Below, one piece after another: positions 2,457 to 13,858 of a stretch of 24,360 nucleotides of DNA. The DNA is taken from positions 1 to 24,360 of IMG/VR virus record IMGVR_UViG_3300029309_000337; one strand, given 5' to 3'. The first letter of the stretch is position 1. Each line of letters begins with the position of its first letter. Source of the stretch: a virus. Under the pieces are notes generated by a model. The model saw nothing but the letters and a program-made list of their open reading frames with translations, was not told the DNA's origin and made no database searches. Both the position numbers and the translations under genes were made by a program.

Positions 2457-3413
2457 ATGGCGGAAGATTTTAAACAATCCAAAGAAAATATTCAAGTTGA
2501 TTTATTTGGTAATGAAGTAACCAAAAAATTTGAATTAAGGGATAAATACCTAGAACCGCCATTTTCGGTATTTGATACCAAACAAGGTTCTTGGCAAAGA
2601 AGACGAAATAAATGGAAAGCGTTAGGTATAGAAAGCGAACTAGGGCGAAAGGTTGATGGAGCTCATTTTGCCGGTAGGCATAGACAAGCCGAACGAAGCG
2701 GAAAAAAACCGGCCGAATCTACCCAAAGAATACTAGATGTCGGCGAACATAGTATATTTGATCCGGTTGTTTGTGAATTGGCCTATTTGTGGTTTAGCGG
2801 TAAAGAAAATGCAAGGATATTAGACCCATTCGCAGGGGGTTCGGTTAGGGGTATTGTTGCGGCTACTATGGGGCATGATTATACCGGTATTGAATTACGC
2901 CCTGAACAAGTTGAAAGCAACATTGAACAAGCTAACAAAATTTTTGAAGAAAAAGAAAAGAAGCCCAAATGGATTGTAGGCAATTCAAATAAAATTTTAG
3001 ACAATTTAAATGACGGCGTACAAAGTAATCAATTGGAAGAATTTGATTTTATTTTTAGTTGTCCGCCTTATGGTAATCTTGAAATTTATAGCGATATGCA
3101 AGACGATATTTCTAACATGGAATATCCACAATTTTTAAAAATATACGAATCAATTATTGCAAAGTCATGCAAGATATTAAAACAAGGGGAATTGGCTTGT
3201 TTTGTTGTGGGCGAATTTAGAGATAAAAAAGGATATTATTACGGCTTTGTTCCGGACACAATTAACGCTTTTAAAAAATGTGGAATGAAGCTCTATAATG
3301 AAATTATCTTATTAAATGCCATTGGTTCAGCTAGTGTAAGAGCTAATACTGCAATGAAAAATAGAAAGGTAGTTAAAATACATCAAAATGTATTAGTTTT
3401 TAAAAAGATATGA
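2457..3413 (+). CDS. DNA methyltransferase, SAM motif before catalytic motif
   Basis: This 318-residue enzyme would transfer a methyl group from S-adenosylmethionine to an amino group of adenine or cytosine in DNA. The SAM-binding motif I is 'DPFAGGS' (123-129), an acidic 'TGIELRPEQ' follows, and the catalytic motif IV is 'SCPPYG' (201-206), so the order is I then IV. The N-terminal 60 residues (DLFGNEV…PPFSVFDTKQGSWQRRRNKWK) are a known phage methylase N-terminus and may help in DNA binding. No restriction enzyme is next to it, so self-protection against host restriction, or regulation, is more likely than a restriction-modification pair. It is flanked by tiny genes and shares four bases with the next gene. 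Confidence 0.85.
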   Translation: MAEDFKQSKENIQVDLFGNEVTKKFELRDKYLEPPFSVFDTKQGSWQRRRNKWKALGIESELGRKVDGAHFAGRHRQAERSGKKPAESTQRILDVGEHSIFDPVVCELAYLWFSGKENARILDPFAGGSVRGIVAATMGHDYTGIELRPEQVESNIEQANKIFEEKEKKPKWIVGNSNKILDNLNDGVQSNQLEEFDFIFSCPPYGNLEIYSDMQDDISNMEYPQFLKIYESIIAKSCKILKQGELACFVVGEFRDKKGYYYGFVPDTINAFKKCGMKLYNEIILLNAIGSASVRANTAMKNRKVVKIHQNVLVFKKI

Positions 3414-3577
3414 CAATTAAAAAAGATTTATATGTTTATAGGGTTTTAAATGGAACAAAACGAATCAAAAAAATTAAATTAAGTAAATTATTAAATCATT
3501 TAAATATGGAAGTATTTACAAAAAAATTTTTTGCAACCGAAAAAGAAGCTAAAGATTATATAAAAAATGTTAAATAA
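3410..3577 (+). CDS. small basic hypothetical protein between methyltransferases
   Basis: A 55-residue lysine-rich protein found by hand: its ATG overlaps the preceding stop as ATGA (3410-3413), and its end overlaps the next start (3567) by 11 bases. The sequence 'MTIKKDLYVYRVLNGTKRIKKI' followed by 'FFATEKEAKDYIKN' resembles a single beta-alpha unit in which a cofactor-sized helix ends the protein. The double overlap on both sides strongly supports translation. Function unknown; it may be an accessory of the neighbouring methyltransferases. Confidence 0.6.
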   Translation: MTIKKDLYVYRVLNGTKRIKKIKLSKLLNHLNMEVFTKKFFATEKEAKDYIKNVK

Positions 3578-4187
3578 ATTCTACCATGAAAATTGTATTA
3601 AACGCCTAACAAATAAAAAGTTTAAATATAATTATATTATTACTTCGCCGCCAGACTTTAGCGAAATAGGGCTTTCATTAAAAGAAAGTTATTATACTTG
3701 GATTAAAGGATATATTGAAAATTTTAATCCTATCAATGGTTTTGTTACTATTTGCATAACCGATAGAAGAGGCAACGGCGGTGTAATTACCAAGCATAAG
3801 GAAGTAATAGATGCTTTTCAAAGTATAGGGTGGGAAGTCCATAGTTATAAAATTTGGGTAAAGTCTTTTAATATAGATTTATACAAATTACCTTATCAAC
3901 ATTTAATTACCTTTACACAAAACAAAAGAAAAGTACCGCCAACAAAAAGAATTTTAGAAGATATATTTTGTATTAAACCAAGCGGATTTAAAAATTCTAT
4001 GCCGGTTGAAATATGTTCTAGACATATAAATTGTTTTACCGAACTTGGCGAAGTTGTTTATGATCCTTTTTTAGGTAGCGGCACTACGGCGATAGCTTGT
4101 AAGTTAAATGAAAGAAGATGGGTTGGTTCTGAAATAAATAAAGATATACTTCCTATTATAGAAGAAAGGTTAAAAAATGAAACTTGA
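3567..4187 (+). CDS. DNA methyltransferase, catalytic motif before SAM motif
   Basis: A 206-residue N4/N6 amino-methyltransferase of the beta-type order: catalytic 'TSPPDF' at 26-31 comes first and SAM motif I 'DPFLGSGTT' at 166-174 near the end, with 'WVGSEIN' (motif II) after it and a 'KNSMPVEICSRHI' stretch (motif X-like) just before it. It is short for the class, with little room for a separate target-recognition domain. Catalytic SPPD has Asp where Tyr or Trp is usual, with Phe next; this may mark a subfamily or altered activity. No restriction nuclease accompanies it. Confidence 0.8.
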   Translation: MLNKFYHENCIKRLTNKKFKYNYIITSPPDFSEIGLSLKESYYTWIKGYIENFNPINGFVTICITDRRGNGGVITKHKEVIDAFQSIGWEVHSYKIWVKSFNIDLYKLPYQHLITFTQNKRKVPPTKRILEDIFCIKPSGFKNSMPVEICSRHINCFTELGEVVYDPFLGSGTTAIACKLNERRWVGSEINKDILPIIEERLKNET

Positions 4188-4356
4188 ACAAACTATTGAT
4201 ATTAAAGAAGTAGCAAGATTAACCTTAAAAAATATTTTATCTTCTAAAGGTATTATTTATAAACATTATGAAAACAAATTTAAAAAAAAATCCTATTGCG
4301 AAGACTTTGATAAAAGCATATTACAAATTACGAATAATAAAACCGAAAAAGGGTAA
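4177..4356 (+). CDS. small hypothetical protein after methyltransferase
   Basis: A 59-residue protein found by hand, starting 11 bases before the methyltransferase stop, with AAAGG 8 bases before its ATG. It is a mostly helical, charged N-terminus (MKLEQTIDIKEVARLTLKNI) followed by a lysine-rich middle (about 34-39) and a single Cys. No family recognised. Length, overlap and ribosome site support a real gene. Confidence 0.55.
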   Translation: MKLEQTIDIKEVARLTLKNILSSKGIIYKHYENKFKKKSYCEDFDKSILQITNNKTEKG

Positions 4357-4364
4357 GGGTAGTT

Positions 4365-4427
4365 ATGTTAGAAACAATTATAATAATAGAACTAGCTTTG
4401 ATTAGTTTATATTTTCTTCAAAATTAA
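4365..4427 (+). CDS. possible 20-residue hydrophobic peptide
   Basis: ATG 4365 follows GGGTAAGGGTAG and gives a nearly all-hydrophobic peptide (MLETIIIIELALISLYFLQN) that could span the membrane once. It runs into the convergent oxygenase-like gene, overlapping it by 26 bases on the opposite strand. Small size makes chance equally possible. Confidence 0.3.
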   Translation: MLETIIIIELALISLYFLQN

Positions 4428-5067
4428 TAGTAGCGTTGAAACTAAAAGAAATTCTTTCTTCGTCTTTGTTTGTAGAATTGAATGGATAAACTTGATGTGA
4501 AAGATTATTTGGAAAAAGAATCCAAGTACGCTCCATATCTTTTGGCATAACCCTGTAATTAGAATCATTGAACATACCCTCCGAACCCTCTACAAATTCT
4601 GTATTACCGGAAAAATCATTATGCTCTTTTGCATTTTCCGTAGGAATCATTGATTGCGGAATTTGTAAGTAACCTACGCTTGATAAATGATAATTTTTGT
4701 TTTTTGTGTATTCCGTATGTCTATGAATTGGGTTGTAATCGTTGGGTTTAGATATGACATACCAAGCTGAATTAATTAATATTGATTTTACAGTTTCTTC
4801 TCTAAAATGTGCATTGGTATAAGAAACCATAATAGGGTCAAAGAATTTTCTTTTCCATTTTAACATTATTTCCGGCGAAATTAAATATTCTTCGGCAACA
4901 TGGCCAACAAGTCTTTTTGACCAATCATGGTCTTTTCTTTTTTGTTTGTCTTGTCTTATTTTTTTTAAATCTTCTTTGAAATCTTTAATTAATTCTAAAG
5001 GTAATGTGGCTTTTGCTAATGTAGAACCGAATGGCTTAAAAATTTTAAAATTAATTTTGTCCGTCAT
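4402..5067 (-). CDS. 2OG-Fe(II) oxygenase-like protein
   Basis: This 221-residue protein resembles the putative 2-oxoglutarate/Fe(II) oxygenases common in marine phages (PF13759-like). The likely metal site is 'NPIHRHTE' (112-119; His115, His117, Glu119) with the distal His191 in 'NLSHQVYPF', and Arg205 in 'EERISFSFN' is the expected 2-oxoglutarate anchor. 'ILFPNNL' before the distal His is typical of the jelly-roll core. The N-terminal 100 residues are a basic helical extension. It is the last gene of a five-gene minus-strand operon and shares ATGA with the gene before it. The substrate is unknown; protein, nucleic acid or small metabolite are all open. Confidence 0.65.
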   Translation of the reverse strand: MTDKINFKIFKPFGSTLAKATLPLELIKDFKEDLKKIRQDKQKRKDHDWSKRLVGHVAEEYLISPEIMLKWKRKFFDPIMVSYTNAHFREETVKSILINSAWYVISKPNDYNPIHRHTEYTKNKNYHLSSVGYLQIPQSMIPTENAKEHNDFSGNTEFVEGSEGMFNDSNYRVMPKDMERTWILFPNNLSHQVYPFNSTNKDEERISFSFNATINFEENIN

Positions 5068-5546
5068 AAATCGTTAATGTTGTATAAATCTTTTATAGGA
5101 ATACTCCAGCATTTAGGTCTATCAAGGCCAAAATTTGTGAGGTATTTATCTTCTAGCTTTGTAAAATATGGAAACCAACCTTGTATTGTATAGGTGTGAT
5201 TGCCCTCATAAGTAATCAAAACATATCTACCCTTTTTTTCTATTGGCCTTATAATTAGAGTATTGTTTTGTTTTCTTTGTTGTGTTCTTATTTCAATATC
5301 CTTACCAACATCAGCTTTATCGTAACGGCTATAAGTATCGGTATAACTACCATTAAAAAAAACATTTTTACCTTTACAATATGCAACTTCGCCCATTGCT
5401 CCAATAATTCCTAAAGATAATGTTTTTTCTTCCGTACCTTTAAAACCATGCCCAAAAGTTTTTTTCATTTTTATATTTTCAACATATCTTTTATTAGCAA
5501 CTTGCGAAGCCATTTCTATTTCGTAAGGTTCTAATTTGACAATCAA
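5064..5546 (-). CDS. conserved phage protein with D…ExR motif, possibly nuclease-fold
   Basis: A 160-residue protein of a widespread phage family that I recognise by its pattern: an N-terminal helix 'KLEPYEIEMASQVANKR', 'GAMGEVAY' (50-57), then 'DKADVGKDIEIRTQ' (76-89) and 'YTIQGWF'. Glu53, Asp79 and Glu85-x-Arg87 are spaced like a PD-(D/E)XK site with Arg in place of the Lys. Nuclease activity is only a suggestion. The start is TTG 5546, overlapping the MT-A70 stop by four bases; an internal ATG at 5513 has no ribosome site and would remove the conserved N-terminus. Confidence 0.6.
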   Translation of the reverse strand: MIVKLEPYEIEMASQVANKRYVENIKMKKTFGHGFKGTEEKTLSLGIIGAMGEVAYCKGKNVFFNGSYTDTYSRYDKADVGKDIEIRTQQRKQNNTLIIRPIEKKGRYVLITYEGNHTYTIQGWFPYFTKLEDKYLTNFGLDRPKCWSIPIKDLYNINDL

Positions 5547-6100
5547 ACTTCGTTACCCCAACAATCCCAACCTTTAACCTTTTGCCTAGCAAACAATTCA
5601 ATTCTTGGTAAATCGCCGCAAAGATTTACAATGTTAGTTCTAATAATATCCGGTTTTCTTGAATGTTCCCTACGGCTATCAATAACTAATTGTTTTACAT
5701 TTTTATAAAATCTTTTTGGTTTACCTTTAGTAGCTAACAAACAAATTTCAGGGTTAGCCCTTGTCCAATAACCTAATCCCATAAAGAAATTATCATTTGT
5801 TTTATTTTTTTTAGCCCATGTAAAAGCGATTGTTTTATATTTAAATCCCCATTGTTTAAGTAACTTAAAAGATTTTTCCAAAAAAGGATCAGTAACCCAC
5901 ATAAACAAACAACAATCCATATCAGCAATATCATTGATATTAAGAGCCAATAAATCGTTAAATTCCATGCAAGAATAATGTTTGGTAGCGTTACGGTCTT
6001 CACCTTTTTTAGAATAACTTTTAAAATACCAGGGTGGGTCAGCATAAATAATTTTATATTTCTTTGAAACTTTTAATATCTTCTTGTCTTCTTTTTTCAT
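5543..6100 (-). CDS. MT-A70 family adenine methyltransferase
   Basis: This 185-residue enzyme probably methylates adenine N6 in DNA (phage members) using SAM. The catalytic 'DPPW' is at 21-24 in 'IIYADPPWYF', followed by 'CLFMWVTDPFLEKSFKLLKQWGFKY', the family's TxWxK-like stretch 'FTWAKKN', 'GYWTRANPEICLLATKG', and the final 'ELFARQKVKGWDCWGNEV', all standard MT-A70 blocks. AAGGAG lies 8 bases before ATG 6100, so this start is preferred to ATG 6118. It overlaps its neighbours on both sides. It is the third methyltransferase in 3.7 kb. Confidence 0.9.
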   Translation of the reverse strand: MKKEDKKILKVSKKYKIIYADPPWYFKSYSKKGEDRNATKHYSCMEFNDLLALNINDIADMDCCLFMWVTDPFLEKSFKLLKQWGFKYKTIAFTWAKKNKTNDNFFMGLGYWTRANPEICLLATKGKPKRFYKNVKQLVIDSRREHSRKPDIIRTNIVNLCGDLPRIELFARQKVKGWDCWGNEV

Positions 6101-6275
6101 CTTCAAGCTCCTTTTCATTTACCATATTTTTTTCATATTTTTTTAACGATGTTTTAGTTCCTGAAAATCTTTTCCACCAACATTCAGCGCAGTAATCCCT
6201 ATGATTTTCAACAACATCAGCTTTGTTATCACAACTAAGTACACTACAAATTGTTATATCACCGTAAATATTCAT
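6054..6275 (-). CDS. small zinc-ribbon-like protein
   Basis: A 73-residue protein with paired cysteines 'CSVLSC' (10-15) and 'YCAEC' (28-32) and an intervening His25, a likely single zinc site in the first half. The second half is highly charged (KKYEKNMVNEKELEDEKRRQED) and probably a helix. Its 3' end overlaps the MT-A70 gene by 47 bases, and the ribosome site of MT-A70 lies inside it. Nucleic-acid or protein binding is typical of such ribbons. Not assignable to a specific family. Confidence 0.6.
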   Translation of the reverse strand: MNIYGDITICSVLSCDNKADVVENHRDYCAECWWKRFSGTKTSLKKYEKNMVNEKELEDEKRRQEDIKSFKEI

Positions 6276-6558
6276 TAATCAATTTCCGTAACTTGTTGTT
6301 AGATTTTAAAATGGGAATAAATTCTTCGGCCAAAAGAGCTGTTTTTTCTTCGCCGATTTTATTTATGTTAATTTTATTTACCCAACAAATAATATGCCAA
6401 AGTTCATGAAACAATGTTTGTGCCATCATTTGTTTTGACAAGTTTGGATTGATTCGCAGAATAAGGGAATCCGGATAGAATATTGCATGACAATCTCCGC
6501 AATTTTCCCATAAAACTTTGATTCGTTTTTTTTTATATTTAATGATTCGAAAACCCAT
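6259..6558 (-). CDS. minimal HExxH metallopeptidase-like protein (ImmA/IrrE-like)
   Basis: A 99-residue protein with the zinc-peptidase motif 'HELWH' (51-55) preceded by a helix 'KQMMAQTLF' and followed by 'EEKTALLAEEF' (70-80), which offers the third, glutamate ligand as in gluzincins. The organisation is that of ImmA/IrrE-type peptidases but lacks the usual extra domain, so the whole protein is just the catalytic core. In other phages such proteins cleave repressors; the XRE regulator at 9281-9628 is the only candidate target here, and it is far away. First gene of the leftward operon, ending with a 17-base overlap into the zinc-ribbon gene. Confidence 0.65.
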   Translation of the reverse strand: MGFRIIKYKKKRIKVLWENCGDCHAIFYPDSLILRINPNLSKQMMAQTLFHELWHIICWVNKININKIGEEKTALLAEEFIPILKSNNKLRKLINEYLR

Positions 6559-6663
6559 AACCTAGATTTATAAAATATTATTTTTAAAATCAATGAAAAT
6601 ATGTATTGTTTTTTTACAAGATTTGTATTAGGTTTCGAATCAATGTTAATTAAAATAGGTAAG
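6559..6663. promoter_or_regulatory. divergent control region
   Basis: The stretch between the leftward modification operon (start 6558) and the rightward recombination operon (start 6664). It is almost pure A/T. Leftward, TTGATT and TATAAA are visible but only 15 bases apart. Rightward, TTGTTT (6606-6611) and TATTAG (6626-6631) have a similarly short gap. A divergent pair of promoters must lie here or close by, but I cannot place them firmly. Confidence 0.35.
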
Positions 6664-6936
6664 ATGTGGAAGCATAGAAAGGAGGGGGGTTGTTTCTCCG
6701 CAGATCATCTTTCTCCCTCACAATTAACTAAATCAACGGATCAATGGTTTTACAACTATTGCGTTCTTGATGAAAAAGATAGGAAGAAGCAGCCCCCTAA
6801 TATGAAAATGATCTTTGGTGGAATTGTAGGTAGAGCTTTACAAGACATCATAGTTCATAAACTAACTATAAATGAAATAATGAAAGGCAAACCAAATGCT
6901 GGAGCAACTAGCAAAATTACAAACACAAAATCGTAA
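6664..6936 (+). CDS. N-terminal module of a RecB/Cas4-like nuclease (split)
   Basis: A 90-residue protein resembling the first third of PD-(D/E)XK exonucleases of the RecB/Cas4 group. 'HLSPSQLTKSTDQWFYNYCVL' (15-35) is the typical opening, and 'FGGIVGRALQDIIVHKL' (51-67) the helix that follows. The catalytic residues are absent and occur instead in the gene at 9615-10259, 2.7 kb away. Together they sum to 304 residues, the usual length of an intact phage enzyme. AGG sits 5 bases before ATG 6664; earlier in-frame ATGs (6601, 6643) give an atypical hydrophobic extension. The last ~15 residues look like read-on into the overlapping next gene. Confidence 0.6.
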   Translation: MWKHRKEGGCFSADHLSPSQLTKSTDQWFYNYCVLDEKDRKKQPPNMKMIFGGIVGRALQDIIVHKLTINEIMKGKPNAGATSKITNTKS

Positions 6937-7147
6937 TCTTACAAAACAAGTAAAAAAACAAGATACTTTGATAAGAGAAAGGGATCAAGAAATTACCGAT
7001 TTAAGAAAGAAAGTTGAAGATTTAAAACAATCGGAAAGAAATAAAGCTAAAAATCAAAGTTATATACATGCTAAAGCATTAAAGGATATTGAACAAAAAA
7101 ATGAAAATGAAAGGAAACATGACACAAAAGACGGAAGAAAAAAGTAA
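6896..7147 (+). CDS. coiled-coil protein
   Basis: An 83-residue highly charged protein with heptad-like leucine spacing (LEQLAKLQTQNRNLTKQVKK…LIRERDQEITDLRKKVEDL), so a parallel coiled coil over about residues 2-50 with a basic tail. AAAGG lies 8-9 bases before its ATG. It overlaps the preceding gene by 41 bases and the next by 29. It may multimerise a recombination complex; no specific family. Confidence 0.6.
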   Translation: MLEQLAKLQTQNRNLTKQVKKQDTLIRERDQEITDLRKKVEDLKQSERNKAKNQSYIHAKALKDIEQKNENERKHDTKDGRKK

Positions 7148-7706
7148 AGGTTCTTTTAAAGATAGAAGAAAAGAATGTATTGAAAAATTAGACAAAGAAG
7201 TAAAAAAAATAGATTTTAAAGGTAAAGAATATCTTACGGTGGCAGCCAGACATAATCATTTACTAAAATTTTTTCCGGAATCTAAAATAGACGAACAATT
7301 AATTTATCAAGATGATAAAAAAGTTATAACTAAAACGACTTTGTATATAGGCGATACTCCTTATAGTACCGGCCATGCAGAAGAAAAAAGAGATGCAAGT
7401 TTTGTTAATAGAACTTCGGCTTTAGAAAATGCTTTTACATCAAGTTTAGGAAGATGTTTAGCAAGTTTCGGACTGCATGGTACGGAATTTGCTTCGGCCG
7501 AAGAACTAGCTAACGCATTAAACAATCAAAATAAACCTAATAATAATTCAATTGAAAAACAAATTGAAAGTCAAAAGACTGAAACAAAATTAAATGCTTT
7601 ATATTCTAAATGGGAAACGGAAAATGAAAGAATAAAGAAAGTATTTGATACCAAAGCTAATACAATCAAAAACAACGGAGGACAAAATGTCAAATCAGGC
7701 TGGTAA
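7119..7706 (+). CDS. ERF/Rad52-like single-strand annealing protein
   Basis: A 195-residue protein that probably anneals single-stranded DNA during phage recombination or replication. 'KGKEYLTVAARHNHLLKFFPESKI' (34-57), a beta sheet around 60-90 (TTLYIGDTPYSTGHAEE), then 'NRTSALENAFTSSLGRCLASFGL' (97-119) and 'ASAEEL' follow the layout of ERF/Sak-type annealers and a related phage group. The C-terminal third is Asn/Lys-rich and probably flexible. I prefer ATG 7119 with AAAGGA just upstream to TTG 7089. The next gene's strong ribosome site is in its last codons. Nuclease modules either side are the expected partners. Confidence 0.68.
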   Translation: MTQKTEEKSKGSFKDRRKECIEKLDKEVKKIDFKGKEYLTVAARHNHLLKFFPESKIDEQLIYQDDKKVITKTTLYIGDTPYSTGHAEEKRDASFVNRTSALENAFTSSLGRCLASFGLHGTEFASAEELANALNNQNKPNNNSIEKQIESQKTETKLNALYSKWETENERIKKVFDTKANTIKNNGGQNVKSGW

Positions 7707-8070
7707 GCAAAAAGACTGGGTGCTGTTTCCATATAACCCAAACCATGAAAAATCTGTAAAAATAGATTTTTCCGGCAACACAAAGTTAGCCAACGGCGAA
7801 AAGGGAACAATATTAGGAAGTAAAGGAACTTCTGCTAAAGGTACTAAATTCATAAGAATTTTTGCCCAAGTAGGTGTTTTATTTAGAGGCGATGATAATA
7901 AATTTACCGGTAATTTACATGCACCGGAAGTAGCCCCTAATGAAAAAAGTTTAATAGGTTGGTTAAATGATCAATCAGATAGTCCAAATATTGCCGGTTA
8001 TCAAAATGATCCAAAACCAAAAGAACAACAACAAACACAATCACAACCAAGTAATGCTTTTGATATTTAG
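7687..8070 (+). CDS. hypothetical protein, possible ssDNA-binding protein
   Basis: A 127-residue protein with GGAGG 5 bases before ATG 7687 and a 20-base overlap with the annealing gene. Strands 'DWVLFPYNP', 'VKIDFSGN', 'GEKGTILGSKG' and 'KFIRIFAQVGVLFRG' suggest a beta barrel, followed by a disordered Gln/Pro tail ending in 'PSNAFDI', which faintly recalls the acidic tip of SSB proteins. No OB-fold motif is certain, and the name rests mainly on context. It could equally be an unrelated structural or recombination accessory protein. Confidence 0.5.
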   Translation: MSNQAGKQKDWVLFPYNPNHEKSVKIDFSGNTKLANGEKGTILGSKGTSAKGTKFIRIFAQVGVLFRGDDNKFTGNLHAPEVAPNEKSLIGWLNDQSDSPNIAGYQNDPKPKEQQQTQSQPSNAFDI

Positions 8071-8348
8071 TGAAAGTGTTTTTTTTGTACTTGTTAATAA
8101 TTGTTGGCGATAGTTATGCTGCCGTTAAGATACCTATTGGCTTTACATTAAGACCTATAACTTGTGAAGAAGCATTTTATAACAATGTAAAATTTGTAAA
8201 GAATAAAAATCATAAACAATATGAACCATTAACTTATGCTACTTATAAAAATTATCATGTGTTTGGCCATTATTGTAAAGATTTAAACAACAATTATTAT
8301 ATGGGTTATGAAGAACAACTTAATTATGATTTAGGCCATGACAAATAA
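8070..8348 (+). CDS. small secreted protein
   Basis: A 92-residue protein starting at GTG 8070, which shares a base with the previous TAG. The N-terminus 'MKVFFLYLLIIVGDSYA' is a classic signal peptide with likely cleavage after Ala17. The mature 75 residues contain two cysteines (32 and 69) that could pair in the periplasm and are rich in Tyr/Asn/His. No family recognised. An exported product inside an early recombination operon is unusual. Confidence 0.6.
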   Translation: MKVFFLYLLIIVGDSYAAVKIPIGFTLRPITCEEAFYNNVKFVKNKNHKQYEPLTYATYKNYHVFGHYCKDLNNNYYMGYEEQLNYDLGHDK

Positions 8349-8649
8349 TATTAAAAATATAAACGAAATAACTAAAGAACTAGAAAAACTTTTAAAAACC
8401 AAACAAGAACAATATGGTAGTTTTAGTTCTACAAGTTATGCTTTTAAAGGCATGTTAGAAAGTATTTTATCGGCTTTTAATGGTTATCAAGTTCGTTGCC
8501 CAAATAATATTTTTGGTATTTGCATGACTTTAGTTAAATTATGGCGTTCAATTACAAATAAAAAATATAAAAAAGATACCTATGATGACATAAATGGATA
8601 TAACGAATTAAATAGGAATCTTAAAATGGAAGAAAATAATGGCAAGTGA
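8338..8649 (+). CDS. DUF6378-like conserved phage protein
   Basis: A 103-residue protein whose features follow a phage family related to DUF6378: an N-terminal helix with 'KTKQEQYGSFSS', the middle 'NGYQVRCPNNIFGICMTLVKLWRSI', and the signature 'YKKDTYDDINGYNEL' (about 78-92). The helices and conserved acidic residues resemble MazG-type nucleotide-pyrophosphatase folds, but the function is unproven. The start ATG lies inside the previous gene's end (11-base overlap). Confidence 0.6.
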   Translation: MTNNIKNINEITKELEKLLKTKQEQYGSFSSTSYAFKGMLESILSAFNGYQVRCPNNIFGICMTLVKLWRSITNKKYKKDTYDDINGYNELNRNLKMEENNGK

Positions 8650-8866
8650 AACAACTATTCCTATGACACCTTTAATGATGAAACTATTGAATTTCATTAA
8701 AAAATATGTCAAAAAGAACAAGTATTATCCAACTTATCAAGAAATGGCTGATGCGTTGGATTTTAAAAGTAAAAATTCGGTAACTGTTTTGATTACTAAA
8801 TTAGAACAAAGAAAAGATTTAAAGCGTTTAAAAGGATATAGAAGAAACATTGTATTAAATGGCTAA
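8639..8866 (+). CDS. stand-alone LexA-type DNA-binding domain
   Basis: A 75-residue protein that consists only of a LexA N-terminal winged-helix domain: 'MTPLMMKLLNFIKKYVKKNKYYPTYQEMADALDFKSKNSVTVLITKLEQRKDLKRLKGYRRNI' is shown here in outline by helix 1 (about 10-24), the turn 'YPTYQEMADAL' and the recognition helix 'SKNSVTVLITKLEQ'. The S24 autocleavage domain of LexA is absent, so it cannot self-cleave. It might occupy host SOS operators or regulate phage promoters. It overlaps genes on both sides. Confidence 0.75.
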   Translation: MASETTIPMTPLMMKLLNFIKKYVKKNKYYPTYQEMADALDFKSKNSVTVLITKLEQRKDLKRLKGYRRNIVLNG

Positions 8867-9125
8867 AGTTGAAAAGAATACTTTACAAGAAATGATTGTA
8901 AATTTTAAAGAATTTTTTGTTGGCGATTCGGTAGAGGAAGCTACTAGAAAAGCTCATGAACAAGAAATGCCCAAAGAAGACGCATTAATAACAATTACTG
9001 ACAGGCGTAGTCTTGGGTCAAAAATTAAATTAGTCAGTAAGGATAATGATGAACATAAATCCCAAACAAATCAGGGATCTAAAAGCAAAGAAAAACAGGT
9101 GGGTGGAACGAATGAACAAACATAA
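8859..9125 (+). CDS. hypothetical acidic/charged protein
   Basis: An 88-residue hydrophilic protein overlapping the preceding LexA-like gene by 8 bases. The first half (LQEMIVNFKEFFVGDSVEEATRKAHEQ) is probably helical; the last 35 residues are disordered (Lys, Gln, Ser, Gly rich). No motif recognised. Confidence 0.5.
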   Translation: MAKVEKNTLQEMIVNFKEFFVGDSVEEATRKAHEQEMPKEDALITITDRRSLGSKIKLVSKDNDEHKSQTNQGSKSKEKQVGGTNEQT

Positions 9126-9216
9126 AAGAATGATTCGTAAATACCAAGACAAATTACCTGTTTTGCATGAAAAGATTGCTGTTTTGGAAAATAGACAAGA
9201 TAGTATTTATACTTAA
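9112..9216 (+). CDS. 34-residue hypothetical peptide
   Basis: Found by hand: ATG 9112 with GTGGAA just upstream, overlapping the previous gene by 14 bases, ending at TAA 9214. The peptide (MNKHKRMIRKYQDKLPVLHEKI… then AVLENRQDSIYT) is a basic then acidic amphipathic helix. Its length and overlap fit the style of this operon, but no homology is claimed. Confidence 0.45.
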   Translation: MNKHKRMIRKYQDKLPVLHEKIAVLENRQDSIYT

Positions 9217-9280
9217 ATACTAATTAAATTAAAAATTGTATTTTAGGGTTAGGGTATTTATGTCTTCAAAGAAAGGAAAC

Positions 9281-9628
9281 ATGCCAAGTCAATTAACACA
9301 TACTACACAAGACGATATAGAACTATATAAACATATAGGTACTAGAATTAAAGAAGCTAGAACTAAAGCTAGTAGAAATATATTACCAACAAATCCAAAT
9401 AGAAAAATGCCAGACAAATTTGTAACACAAACAGATTTAGGCAACGCAATAAAAGTAACATTTCAACAGATACAGAAATATGAAAAAGCTACAAACAAAA
9501 TTCCTATTTGCAAACTTGTAGCCGTATCAAAATATTTAAAAAAACCTTTATCTTATTTTATTCCGCAATTAGAAGAACCTTTAGTATTAAAGCCGGAATG
9601 GGAGGTGAAAGATAATGTCAAGCAATAA
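9281..9628 (+). CDS. XRE-type (Cro/CI-like) helix-turn-helix regulator
   Basis: A 115-residue DNA-binding protein. The domain spans about 18-98: helix 1 'HIGTRIKEARTKA', the turn 'VTQTDLGNAIKVTFQQIQKYEKA' with 'TQTDLGNAI' and 'TFQQIQKYE' as helices 2 and 3, and 'PICKLVAVSKYLKKPLSYF' to close the fold. The insertion between helices 1 and 2 (RNILPTNPNRKMPDK) is longer than in the standard family. AAAGGAAAC precedes ATG 9281; ATG 9260 in frame is an alternative. A repressor role is plausible. It overlaps the nuclease module by 14 bases. Confidence 0.7.
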   Translation: MPSQLTHTTQDDIELYKHIGTRIKEARTKASRNILPTNPNRKMPDKFVTQTDLGNAIKVTFQQIQKYEKATNKIPICKLVAVSKYLKKPLSYFIPQLEEPLVLKPEWEVKDNVKQ

Positions 9629-10259
9629 TTTTGTACCGGTAAATGAAAAGTTAAAAAGACTTATACCTGATCCGGTAGAACTAGACGCTTATAATCATTT
9701 TTGCACAATAATTGAAAGAATGATTATTAATGGACATGAAGCACATAAAACAATACCTGACTTTGATAAGTGTAAGCCGGAAATAGAAGCATATAAAGTT
9801 TTTGACGGAATACAAATTCCTGTTCATGGCTACGCTGATTTAAAAGGTAAAATGGTTATTGAGGATAAATGTAAGTTTCCAAAACAAGGAAGACTTAAAA
9901 AAGATAATACTAGATCATGGTTAACTGTAAAATTACCGGATAAACCAACTAGCGACCACCTTTTGCAAACGGATTTTTACCATTATGCAACCGGCCTACC
10001 AATTTATATTTGTTATATAAATGAAGAAACATTTAAAGTTTTTCATGCCGGTAATTACGACTTACTTAAACCGGAGGCTATCATGTCAAGATTGCCTAAT
10101 TTTATTCAAAGATGTAAAGTTAGGCAAAACCTCTTATCAATAAGCAATGACGCAAAAGTAATCAAAGACTACATTCAACCGGATTTTGAAAACTTTAAAT
10201 GGAAGAATGAACTAGACCCTGATTACTTAATTAATGCAATGAACTATTGGAAAAGTTAA
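9615..10259 (+). CDS. C-terminal catalytic module of a RecB/Cas4-like nuclease (split)
   Basis: A 214-residue protein that carries the active site of a PD-(D/E)XK exonuclease: 'HGYADL' (Asp75) and 'VIEDKCKF' (Glu83, Lys85), then the RecB-family helix 'LLQTDFYHYATGLP' with the Q-x3-Y pair (Gln118, Tyr122). It opens with 'VNEKLKRLIPDPVELDAY', the stretch that lies mid-protein in intact relatives, and the usual N-terminal part is found in 6664-6936. The ribosome site GGAGGTGA (9601-9608) 6 bases before ATG is the best in the window, so it is translated separately. It likely digests DNA ends to feed the annealing protein. Whether it is active alone is unknown. Confidence 0.7.
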   Translation: MSSNNFVPVNEKLKRLIPDPVELDAYNHFCTIIERMIINGHEAHKTIPDFDKCKPEIEAYKVFDGIQIPVHGYADLKGKMVIEDKCKFPKQGRLKKDNTRSWLTVKLPDKPTSDHLLQTDFYHYATGLPIYICYINEETFKVFHAGNYDLLKPEAIMSRLPNFIQRCKVRQNLLSISNDAKVIKDYIQPDFENFKWKNELDPDYLINAMNYWKS

Positions 10260-10280
10260 TCTTATCCCACCGTCTATCCC

Positions 10281-10298
10281 AGCTTTACAACGAAAGCT
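10281..10298. terminator. weak hairpin between convergent operons
   Basis: AGCTTT (10281-10286) and AAAGCT (10293-10298) form a six-base stem with a six-base loop in the 51-base gap where the rightward nuclease gene meets the leftward lysine-rich cluster. The run of T (after 10306) starts a few bases late for a classic intrinsic terminator. The position is right for one; the sequence is only suggestive. Confidence 0.3.
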
Positions 10299-10310
10299 AC
10301 ACCTAACTTT

Positions 10311-10559
10311 TTAAGTTCTTGCGTAATTCGGTTTTTTGCCTTTTCTTGATTTTTTTTCGGCACTTTGTTTTCTTGAAACTGCGGCTCTTCTTTGTGAAGA
10401 AGACATTGATCTGGCTTTAGCAATGGGTACACATTTGGGATAGTTTTTTCTTTTTTCCCCTTTGCTTCGTCCACATGGTGGGTAGCTTCCGTCCGACCTT
10501 TTGTTTGCTATGTCAACCCATCTTTCGGAAACCCAGCTTCTTAATCCTTTTTTGGCCAT
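10311..10559 (-). CDS. DUF5872-like basic protein
   Basis: An 82-residue very basic protein recognised from the DUF5872 family of phages and large DNA viruses: 'KGLRSWVSERWVDI', 'DGSYPPCGRSKG', 'YPKCVPIAKARSMSSSQRRAAVSRK' and a lysine-rich end. The two Cys (29 and 43) and conserved order are as I remember the family; function unknown, perhaps nucleic-acid binding. It is the last of a chain of lysine-rich minigenes and starts on the last base of the previous stop (TAATG). An alternative frame continues past its stop with no better support. Confidence 0.65.
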   Translation of the reverse strand: MAKKGLRSWVSERWVDIANKRSDGSYPPCGRSKGEKRKNYPKCVPIAKARSMSSSQRRAAVSRKQSAEKKSRKGKKPNYART

Positions 10560-10705
10560 TATCTTTTTTTCTTTTTTTTCTTTTTACCGCCAGGTGTAAT
10601 TTTTCCGCTGCAAACTCCACTAGCATACATATTAGCATACGCTGATGGGTACACTTTAAATTTTCGCTTTGCAGCGGCTTTACCTCTAGCACATAGTTTG
10701 GCCAT
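10559..10705 (-). CDS. 48-residue lysine-rich protein ('VYPSAYAN' type)
   Basis: Found by hand. The core 'GKAAAKRKFKVYPSAYANMYA' continuing to 'SGVCSGKI' is a small family that I recognise from phages next to DUF5872-like genes, and the protein ends in eight basic residues (seven Lys, then Arg) encoded by an A-rich run. It joins both neighbours by TAATG junctions (at 10705 and 10559). Probable DNA- or capsid-interior-binding peptide; function unknown. Confidence 0.65.
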   Translation of the reverse strand: MAKLCARGKAAAKRKFKVYPSAYANMYASGVCSGKITPGGKKKKKKKR

Positions 10706-13114: not shown

Positions 13115-13497
13115 CAGTGTCCGCTTCCATTTCTAATTAATTTTTCTACATCAGATTGTAGTTTTGATATTTGTTCTTTTAGAAAATCAATATTTACTTT
13201 ATTGTTTCTCATACCTTTTAATTCTTCGTCCATAGTTTCAATTAAACCTGCCATGTGTTCAACTAACATAAAAAGCTCTGCTTCACCTGAAGATTGACCT
13301 AATTCCCCTCTTGGGTATTTAATTCTAAATTCAGAATTAGCTTCTAAATCTTTTTCCATTAACTCTAATTTTGTAGAGTGTTTATTTAAAGTTTCTACCA
13401 CACCAAAATAAGCCCAAACGCCAACAGCTACAGCAAAAACTATGCTGATTAAATTTTTCATTGGCATTGATATTGATGTGTTTTCGCTAACTTTCAT
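13114..13497 (-). CDS. conserved phage membrane protein, coiled-coil
   Basis: A 127-residue protein. After 'MKVSENTSISMPMKNL' comes a transmembrane segment (ISIVFAVAVGVWAYFGVV), then a long charged region with 'FRIKYPRGELGQSSGEAELFMLVEHMAGLI' (about 57-86) in the middle, and a C-terminal coiled coil (DFLKEQISKLQSDVEKL). This near-invariant arrangement is known to me from marine phages, but its function is unknown. Possibly an antiholin or inner-membrane scaffold in lysis. ATG 13497 is used instead of an upstream TTG (13503); it overlaps the nuclease gene's end by 11 bases. Confidence 0.7.
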   Translation of the reverse strand: MKVSENTSISMPMKNLISIVFAVAVGVWAYFGVVETLNKHSTKLELMEKDLEANSEFRIKYPRGELGQSSGEAELFMLVEHMAGLIETMDEELKGMRNNKVNIDFLKEQISKLQSDVEKLIRNGSGH

Positions 13498-13858
13498 AAT
13501 CAATCATAAATAATTTTATACCTAATTGTTTTTGATGTTTAGTAGGAGCTCTATAAATTTTATATGTGCCTTTAGCTTTATCTTCTAAACTAACGCCTTT
13601 ATTTGTTTTGCGATAGGTATTTGTTTTAATATCTAAAAGTTCTATTTTACCTTTTTTACTAACAATAACAATATCAAACGGACAAGCAGGATCTACCGCT
13701 TTGGCTACAAAATAACCTTGTTTTGTTAATTGAGCAATAGCTTCATATTCACTTGCCGTACCTTTTTGTGAAGTTCTTTTTTGTCTATCGGATATTATTG
13801 AAGAAGTGTAATCACCAAGTTGACAAGTCCACTTATGCTTATTGTTAGAATCAGCCAT
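13487..13858 (-). CDS. Holliday-junction-resolvase-like PD-(D/E)XK nuclease
   Basis: A 123-residue protein. 'QKGTASEYEAIAQLTKQGYFV' (31-51) is the Hjc-type first helix with a Glu, 'DPACPFDIVIV' (56-66) gives Asp62, and 'KIELLDIKTNTYRK' (71-84) gives Asp76-x-Lys78, the core of a PD-(D/E)XK site. It probably cuts branched DNA formed in recombination or during packaging. It overlaps the upstream gene by 64 bases and the downstream one by 11, and no good ribosome site is seen. It is unusual to find it in a lysis cassette. Confidence 0.65.
   Translation of the reverse strand: MADSNNKHKWTCQLGDYTSSIISDRQKRTSQKGTASEYEAIAQLTKQGYFVAKAVDPACPFDIVIVSKKGKIELLDIKTNTYRKTNKGVSLEDKAKGTYKIYRAPTKHQKQLGIKLFMIDYES

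What the first reader, a model, noticed from the sequence alone, without database searches (positions are those of the whole stretch)
6664..10259. RecB/Cas4-like nuclease split into two genes 2.7 kb apart
6664-6936 carries the 'HLSPSQL…GGIVGRAL' start typical of RecB/Cas4-like PD-(D/E)XK exonucleases but no active site. 9615-10259 carries Asp75, Glu83-x-Lys85 and the Q-x3-Y pair but lacks the usual start; its first residues look like the middle of the protein. Lengths sum to 304, about that of intact relatives. Nine genes, including the annealing protein and two regulators, lie between. The second half has the best ribosome site of the window (GGAGGTGA), so it is translated on its own. Either a cassette has been inserted into the gene, or the enzyme works as two interacting chains.
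Basis: partly seen in the sequence, partly recalled or inferred. Interest (0 to 1): 0.72.

Follow-up and report, generated by a model that had tools for sequence, protein, structure and literature searches.

The report
Phage DNA exonuclease split across operon
In a whole lineage of viruses related to a phage of the abundant ocean bacterium Pelagibacter, a DNA-chewing enzyme that related viruses make from one gene is encoded as two separate, well-preserved pieces about 2.7 kb and nine genes apart, which probably fold together into one working enzyme.

Summary
Window 6643-6936 (97 aa) and 9615-10259 (214 aa) match residues 6-66 and 79-268 of one 270-aa nuclease, without overlap. The intact form occurs in over 70 distinct related viral sequences and has a predicted RecE/Cas4-like PD-(D/E)XK fold.

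The split is not a local accident. It is present in 131 fetched loci (99 distinct stretches) and in the isolate Pelagibacter phage HTVC106P. Wherever the contig has room, both halves are present. Both evolve at dN/dS of about 0.17, and all split forms make one branch (100/100).

The break lies in a loop between the N-terminal helices and the catalytic core. Intact relatives keep the gene directly before the annealing-protein slot. In the split clade the N-half stays there, and the catalytic C-half follows the XRE regulator at the operon's end. The intervening genes include the operon's own, so "cassette insertion" is rejected: the gene's 3' part moved, or two copies each lost a different part.

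Best explanation: a two-chain exonuclease working with the phage annealing protein. Assembly is inferred, not shown. Main rival: the C-half acts alone and the N-half was repurposed. Novelty: new variant of a known kind (phage genes-in-pieces).

The parts
6643..6936 (+). N-half of the nuclease, 97 aa: N-terminal helical part (HLSPSQL...W..Y..L...R...FGG..G..LQ)
   Evidence: matches positions 6-66 of the intact-family profile; equals HTVC106P gp12; conserved start
9615..10259 (+). C-half of the nuclease, 214 aa: catalytic core with D75, E83-x-K85 and Q118-x3-Y122
   Evidence: matches positions 79-268 of the intact-family profile; catalytic residues invariant in 27 homologues; equals HTVC106P gp22
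9601..9608 (+). GGAGGTGA ribosome-binding site of the C-half, inside the 3' end of the XRE gene
   Evidence: sequence; not conserved in the clade
6896..7147 (+). ORF with coiled-coil-like sequence, overlapping the end of the N-half
   Evidence: ORF; relatives in many split loci
7104..7706 (+). annealing-type (ERF-like) protein; function inferred from position and HTVC028P relatives
   Evidence: profile match 100% to the HTVC028P gp09 family; no Pfam or PDB support
7687..8070 (+). SSB-like small protein in the slot after the annealing-type protein
   Evidence: conserved position in split loci and in intact operons
8338..8649 (+). DUF6378-like protein
   Evidence: Pfam E=4.6e-5, below the curated cut-off; present downstream of the intact nuclease in HTVC028P-type loci
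8639..8866 (+). LexA-type DNA-binding domain protein
   Evidence: Pfam LexA_DNA_bind E=3.6e-9
9260..9628 (+). XRE-type helix-turn-helix regulator; its 3' end overlaps the start of the C-half by 14 bases
   Evidence: HTH_3 E=1.4e-4 just under its cut-off; 99% profile match to the HTVC028P XRE family

Best explanation
An ancestral single-gene PD-(D/E)XK exonuclease of RecE/Cas4/AdnA-nuclease type, encoded directly upstream of the phage annealing protein and SSB-like protein, was split at a loop between its N-terminal helical part and its catalytic core. The N-terminal part stayed in place. The catalytic part became a gene after the XRE regulator about 2.7 kb downstream, by relocation or by duplication followed by complementary loss. 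The two products most likely re-associate as a two-chain exonuclease: the C-half supplies the D/ExK/QxxxY active site, and the N-half supplies the helical side of the fold, against which the C-half's C-terminal tail probably packs. The enzyme would resect DNA ends so that the annealing protein can work, as Exo/Redbeta and RecE/RecT do. Shown here: the split, its tiling, its conservation, its single branch and its place in the predicted fold. Inferred: physical assembly, nuclease activity and partnership with the annealing protein.
For: Tiling without overlap. Both halves in 131 loci, 99 distinct stretches, with complete co-occurrence where the contig has room: 70/70, 65/65 and 40/40. Median dN/dS 0.18 (N) and 0.16 (C). 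One branch, 100/100. The break falls in loop 74-82 between helices of the intact model, mean pLDDT 93, a stretch that also varies in length among intact relatives. The C-half modelled alone has a confident core, but its last 40 residues drop to pLDDT 47-61, against 83-93 for the corresponding end of the intact protein. The N-half keeps 12 of 21 near-invariant residues of intact enzymes, against 6 of 48 variable ones, p=2e-4. Fold matches RecE Z 14.2, Cas4-family 12.9, AdnA 12.5, lambda exonuclease 8.7. 85 of 86 intact genes lie directly before an annealing-protein gene.
Against: No complex was modelled or measured. The motif I His is Gly in the split N-halves, so the N-half adds no known catalytic residue. 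All catalytic residues are in the C-half, which could work alone. The annealing role of the 7104-7706 product is inferred. The contrast in pLDDT between the two models may partly reflect different alignments.
Confidence: 0.75

Rival explanations
1. The C-half is a self-sufficient nuclease, and the N-half has been repurposed, for example as a docking or regulatory protein for the annealing protein beside which it still lies.
For: All catalytic residues are in the C-half; its core models confidently alone; small nucleases of this superfamily such as Hjc match the core without N-terminal helices.
Against: The N-half keeps the signature residues of intact enzymes and is never seen without the C-half where there is room; the C-half's tail loses confidence without it.
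Confidence: 0.19
2. A gene cassette was inserted into an intact nuclease gene.
For: Nine genes lie between the halves; about 1 kb more lies there in L297-L301.
Against: The annealing-type, SSB-like, DUF6378-like and XRE genes follow the intact nuclease in HTVC028P-type phages. In an insertion they would lie after the C-half. No homing endonuclease, intein or intron was detected.
Confidence: 0.04
3. The pieces are decaying remains of a lost gene, or an assembly artefact.
For: The motif I His is missing, and no function is annotated for either piece.
Against: dN/dS of about 0.17 on both halves, open frames kept down to about 57% identity, an isolate genome and many independent contigs.
Confidence: 0.02

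Closest known systems
Pelagibacter phage HTVC106P gp12 and gp22 (MN698244)
   Same: The same two halves in the same order and spacing.
   Different: Annotated only as hypothetical proteins; the link between them was not recorded there.
Intact phage nucleases: Phage C72C1 CDS0045, Pelagibacter phage HTVC028P gp07, HTVC203P gp17
   Same: Same protein family, and the same slot before the annealing protein.
   Different: Single gene of 270-360 aa; C72C1-type keeps the motif I His, HTVC028P-type does not.
RecE exonuclease, Cas4-family nucleases (SSO0001, ACE1), AdnA nuclease domain, lambda exonuclease
   Same: Predicted fold of the intact relative (Z 14.2, 12.9, 12.8, 12.5, 8.7); same catalytic motifs.
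   Different: Sequence identity only 8-16%; all are single chains or single domains.
Phage genes-in-pieces: Aeromonas phage Aeh1 nrdA, T4 topoisomerase gene 60/39, DNA polymerase 43A/43B
   Same: One enzyme encoded as two polypeptides; in the studied cases the pieces form active enzyme (PMC2988022).
   Different: Those pieces lie beside an inserted homing endonuclease or spacer. Here they are nine genes apart, by rearrangement inside the operon, with no homing endonuclease detected, and the state is kept through a whole clade.

Membership tests
PD-(D/E)XK exonucleases of RecB/Cas4/RecE type | Asp, Glu-x-Lys and Gln-x3-Tyr catalytic motifs | tested here: met
   D75, E83, K85, Q118, Y122 invariant in 27 homologues
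PD-(D/E)XK exonucleases of RecB/Cas4/RecE type | Nuclease core fold with N-terminal helices | tested here: met
   intact relative matches RecE, Cas4-family, AdnA, lambda exonuclease over its length; the C-half alone matches the core
PD-(D/E)XK exonucleases of RecB/Cas4/RecE type | Motif I metal-ligand His (common in RecB/Cas4, not in all members) | tested here: not met
   Gly at this position in all 17 split representatives; also absent in HTVC028P-type intact enzymes
PD-(D/E)XK exonucleases of RecB/Cas4/RecE type | Exonuclease activity | not testable with these tools
   needs purified protein
Cas4 (iron-sulphur nuclease) | Four cysteines binding an Fe-S cluster | tested here: inconclusive
   the C-halves have invariant cysteines, but N-half cysteines are not invariant and spacing was not tested against Cas4
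Phage genes-in-pieces | Two genes whose products tile one intact enzyme | tested here: met
   positions 6-66 and 79-268 of the intact profile, no overlap
Phage genes-in-pieces | Pieces beside an inserted homing endonuclease or spacer (usual origin) | tested here: not met
   operon genes lie between; no homing endonuclease among the intervening ORFs scanned
Phage genes-in-pieces | Pieces assemble into active enzyme | not testable with these tools
   complex prediction and purification were not available
Split intein or trans-spliced intron | Intein halves or intron RNA at the junction ends | tested here: not met
   no Rfam match in 6000-10600; only about 20-30 extra residues at each junction end

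The most novel reading that the evidence does not exclude
The separation is itself functional. The N-half is a separately made activating or docking subunit that stays with the annealing protein, while the catalytic half is made last, overlapping the XRE regulator gene. Active end-resecting nuclease would then appear only after the whole early operon has been read: a built-in delay or AND-gate on a DNA-degrading enzyme.
Probability: 0.2. Interest if true: 0.7.

Novelty: new variant of a known kind. Interest (0 to 1): 0.52.

Why it matters
If the two chains assemble, this is a naturally two-chain member of the RecE/Cas4-type exonuclease fold, with a break point kept through a large virus clade. 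It shows that a phage gene can be split by rearrangement inside its operon rather than by a mobile insert, and stay split. It also gives a likely function to two unannotated genes in phages of Pelagibacter, and points to a natural split site for studying or controlling nucleases of this fold.

Tried and rejected
Cassette or homing-endonuclease insertion: rejected by synteny with intact HTVC028P-type operons. Split intein or intron: no Rfam match and little room at the junctions. A hidden second copy or leftover fragments: no further nuclease-like frame in 75 split loci or the window or in the rest of HTVC106P, where one 10-bit match is at chance level. Intermediates (intact gene at the downstream place, re-fused halves, one half only): none in two further scans; single-half loci end at contig edges. 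Nearest intact lineage: unsettled, because the tree joins the split clade with HTVC028P-type but warns of long branches meeting. Sequence searches of solved structures found no convincing relative of the nuclease or of the annealing-type protein. Literature searches found no report of this split; only open-licence papers are held. The window's annealing-type protein is not detectably related to the Sak-like protein of C72C1, so only its slot is shared with that group.

Full report
What was checked. The finding states that 6664-6936 and 9615-10259 are the N- and C-terminal parts of one RecB/Cas4-like nuclease. Both reading frames exist as stated. Comparison with relatives puts the N-half start at ATG 6643 (MLIKIGK..., the conserved start), giving 97 aa; the C-half is 214 aa. 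The window is a 24,360-base virus record. Its closest isolate here is Pelagibacter phage HTVC106P, in which gp12 (65% identity over the matched part) and gp22 (61%) are the same two halves in the same order; both are annotated as hypothetical proteins.

Do they tile one protein? Yes. Intact relatives are Phage C72C1 CDS0045 (270 aa), HTVC028P gp07 (360 aa), HTVC203P gp17 (322 aa) and many environmental virus sequences. A profile of 58 intact proteins of the 270-aa type matches the N-halves at positions 6-66 (median 34 bits, best shuffled sequence 6) and the C-halves at 79-268 (median 132 bits, best shuffled 5), with no overlap. Profile-profile comparison gives 97.9% and 99.9% probability. The stretch between these positions also varies in length among intact relatives.

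Is it real biology rather than an assembly error or decay? 131 loci, 99 distinct stretches, carry both halves. Where a C-half has room upstream, the N-half is there (70/70, then 40/40 in a further scan), and where an N-half has room downstream, the C-half is there (65/65). Some loci come from one contig fetched twice, so these counts are not all independent. Loci with only one half end near a contig edge, and the borderline cases checked are consistent with that. The gap between halves runs from about 2.5 to 3.6 kb. Both halves are under purifying selection, median dN/dS 0.18 and 0.16. All split forms make one branch with 100/100 support, so one origin is the simplest reading. No further nuclease-like frame lies in the split loci, the window or HTVC106P.

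How did the gene come apart? In 85 of 86 intact cases with room, the nuclease gene lies directly before an annealing-protein gene. In HTVC028P-type phages the order is intact nuclease, annealing-type protein, SSB-like, DUF6378-like, others, XRE regulator. In the window the N-half and a coiled-coil ORF are followed by the homologous annealing-type protein (profile match 100%), SSB-like protein, DUF6378-like protein, LexA-type protein and XRE regulator (99%), and the C-half comes directly after XRE. So these resident genes were not inserted. Either the 3' part of the nuclease gene moved to the end of the operon, or two copies each lost the opposite part. No intermediate was found, so these two routes cannot be told apart.

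What is the enzyme? The intact relative models with high confidence (mean pLDDT 93) and matches E. coli RecE (Z 14.2), a putative exonuclease 3l0a (14.0), Cas4-family SSO0001 (12.9), ACE1 (12.8), AdnA (12.5) and lambda exonuclease (8.7). The break falls in the loop 74-82 between two helices. The N-half is thus the N-terminal helical part and the C-half the catalytic core. The Asp, Glu-x-Lys and Gln-x3-Tyr residues are invariant in 27 aligned proteins. The motif I His of C72C1-type enzymes is Gly in all split representatives, but HTVC028P-type intact enzymes also lack it, so its loss is not particular to the split.

Does the enzyme work as two chains? This is inferred. The C-half modelled alone keeps a confident core, but its last 40 residues drop to pLDDT 47-61, while the corresponding end of the intact protein stays at 83-93, as expected if the tail packs on the N-part; different alignments may explain some of this contrast. 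The N-half keeps 12 of 21 near-invariant residues of intact enzymes, against 6 of 48 variable ones (p=2e-4). Together with the co-retention this favours a two-chain enzyme over a repurposed N-half. The main rival, a self-sufficient C-half with a repurposed N-half, is not excluded, since all catalytic residues are in the C-half.

Function. By family and neighbourhood the enzyme most likely resects DNA ends for single-strand annealing, as Exo/Redbeta or RecE/RecT do (established knowledge of those systems). The annealing role of the 7104-7706 product rests on position and on its HTVC028P relatives; Pfam and PDB sequence searches gave nothing convincing.

Known or new? Split phage enzymes are known: nrdA of Aeh1, T4 topoisomerase, and DNA polymerase 43A/43B, whose pieces lie beside an inserted homing endonuclease or spacer and, where studied, assemble into active enzyme (PMC2988022). 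No report of this split was found in the open-licence library. I rate it a new variant of a known kind: a clade-wide, rearrangement-type fission of a recombination exonuclease with its pieces at two places in one operon.

Noticed in passing
window 6612-6645: A TTGTAT-like stretch followed by CGAATCA lies just before the N-half ATG in the window and in many split relatives. It could be a promoter giving a very short or no leader, which would make the N-half the first gene of the operon.
   Followed up: partly
window 13487-13858, - strand: A small protein with a sub-threshold PDDEXK_5 match (E=6.8e-5), a second, unrelated nuclease candidate in the structural half of the window.
   Followed up: partly
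window 3567-4187, + strand: An N6_N4 methyltransferase that matches only the last third of the Pfam model; a TSPPDF-like motif stands near its start, so it may be shortened or rearranged.
   Followed up: no
window 2457-6118: Three methyltransferase-type genes (two N6_N4, one MT-A70) and a 2OG-Fe(II) oxygenase lie together just upstream of the operon.
   Followed up: no
L297, L299, L300, L301; L263: About 1 kb more DNA lies between the halves than usual in L297-L301, and about 0.46 kb extra lies between the N-half and the coiled-coil ORF in L263, so the spacing is not fixed.
   Followed up: partly
L011 1053-1718: The C-half looks mosaic: its first part resembles the L016 type and the rest the window type, suggesting recombination inside the gene or a chimeric assembly.
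   Followed up: no
L006 1431-1745; L200 5971-6324: A C-half (L006) and an intact-type nuclease (L200) have broken reading frames, either sequencing errors or decayed copies.
   Followed up: no
window 9615-10259: Several cysteines (in CKPEIE, EDKC next to the catalytic Lys, CYINE and QRCK) are invariant in the aligned split C-halves; at two of these positions intact enzymes have Thr or Ala instead. Meaning unknown.
   Followed up: no
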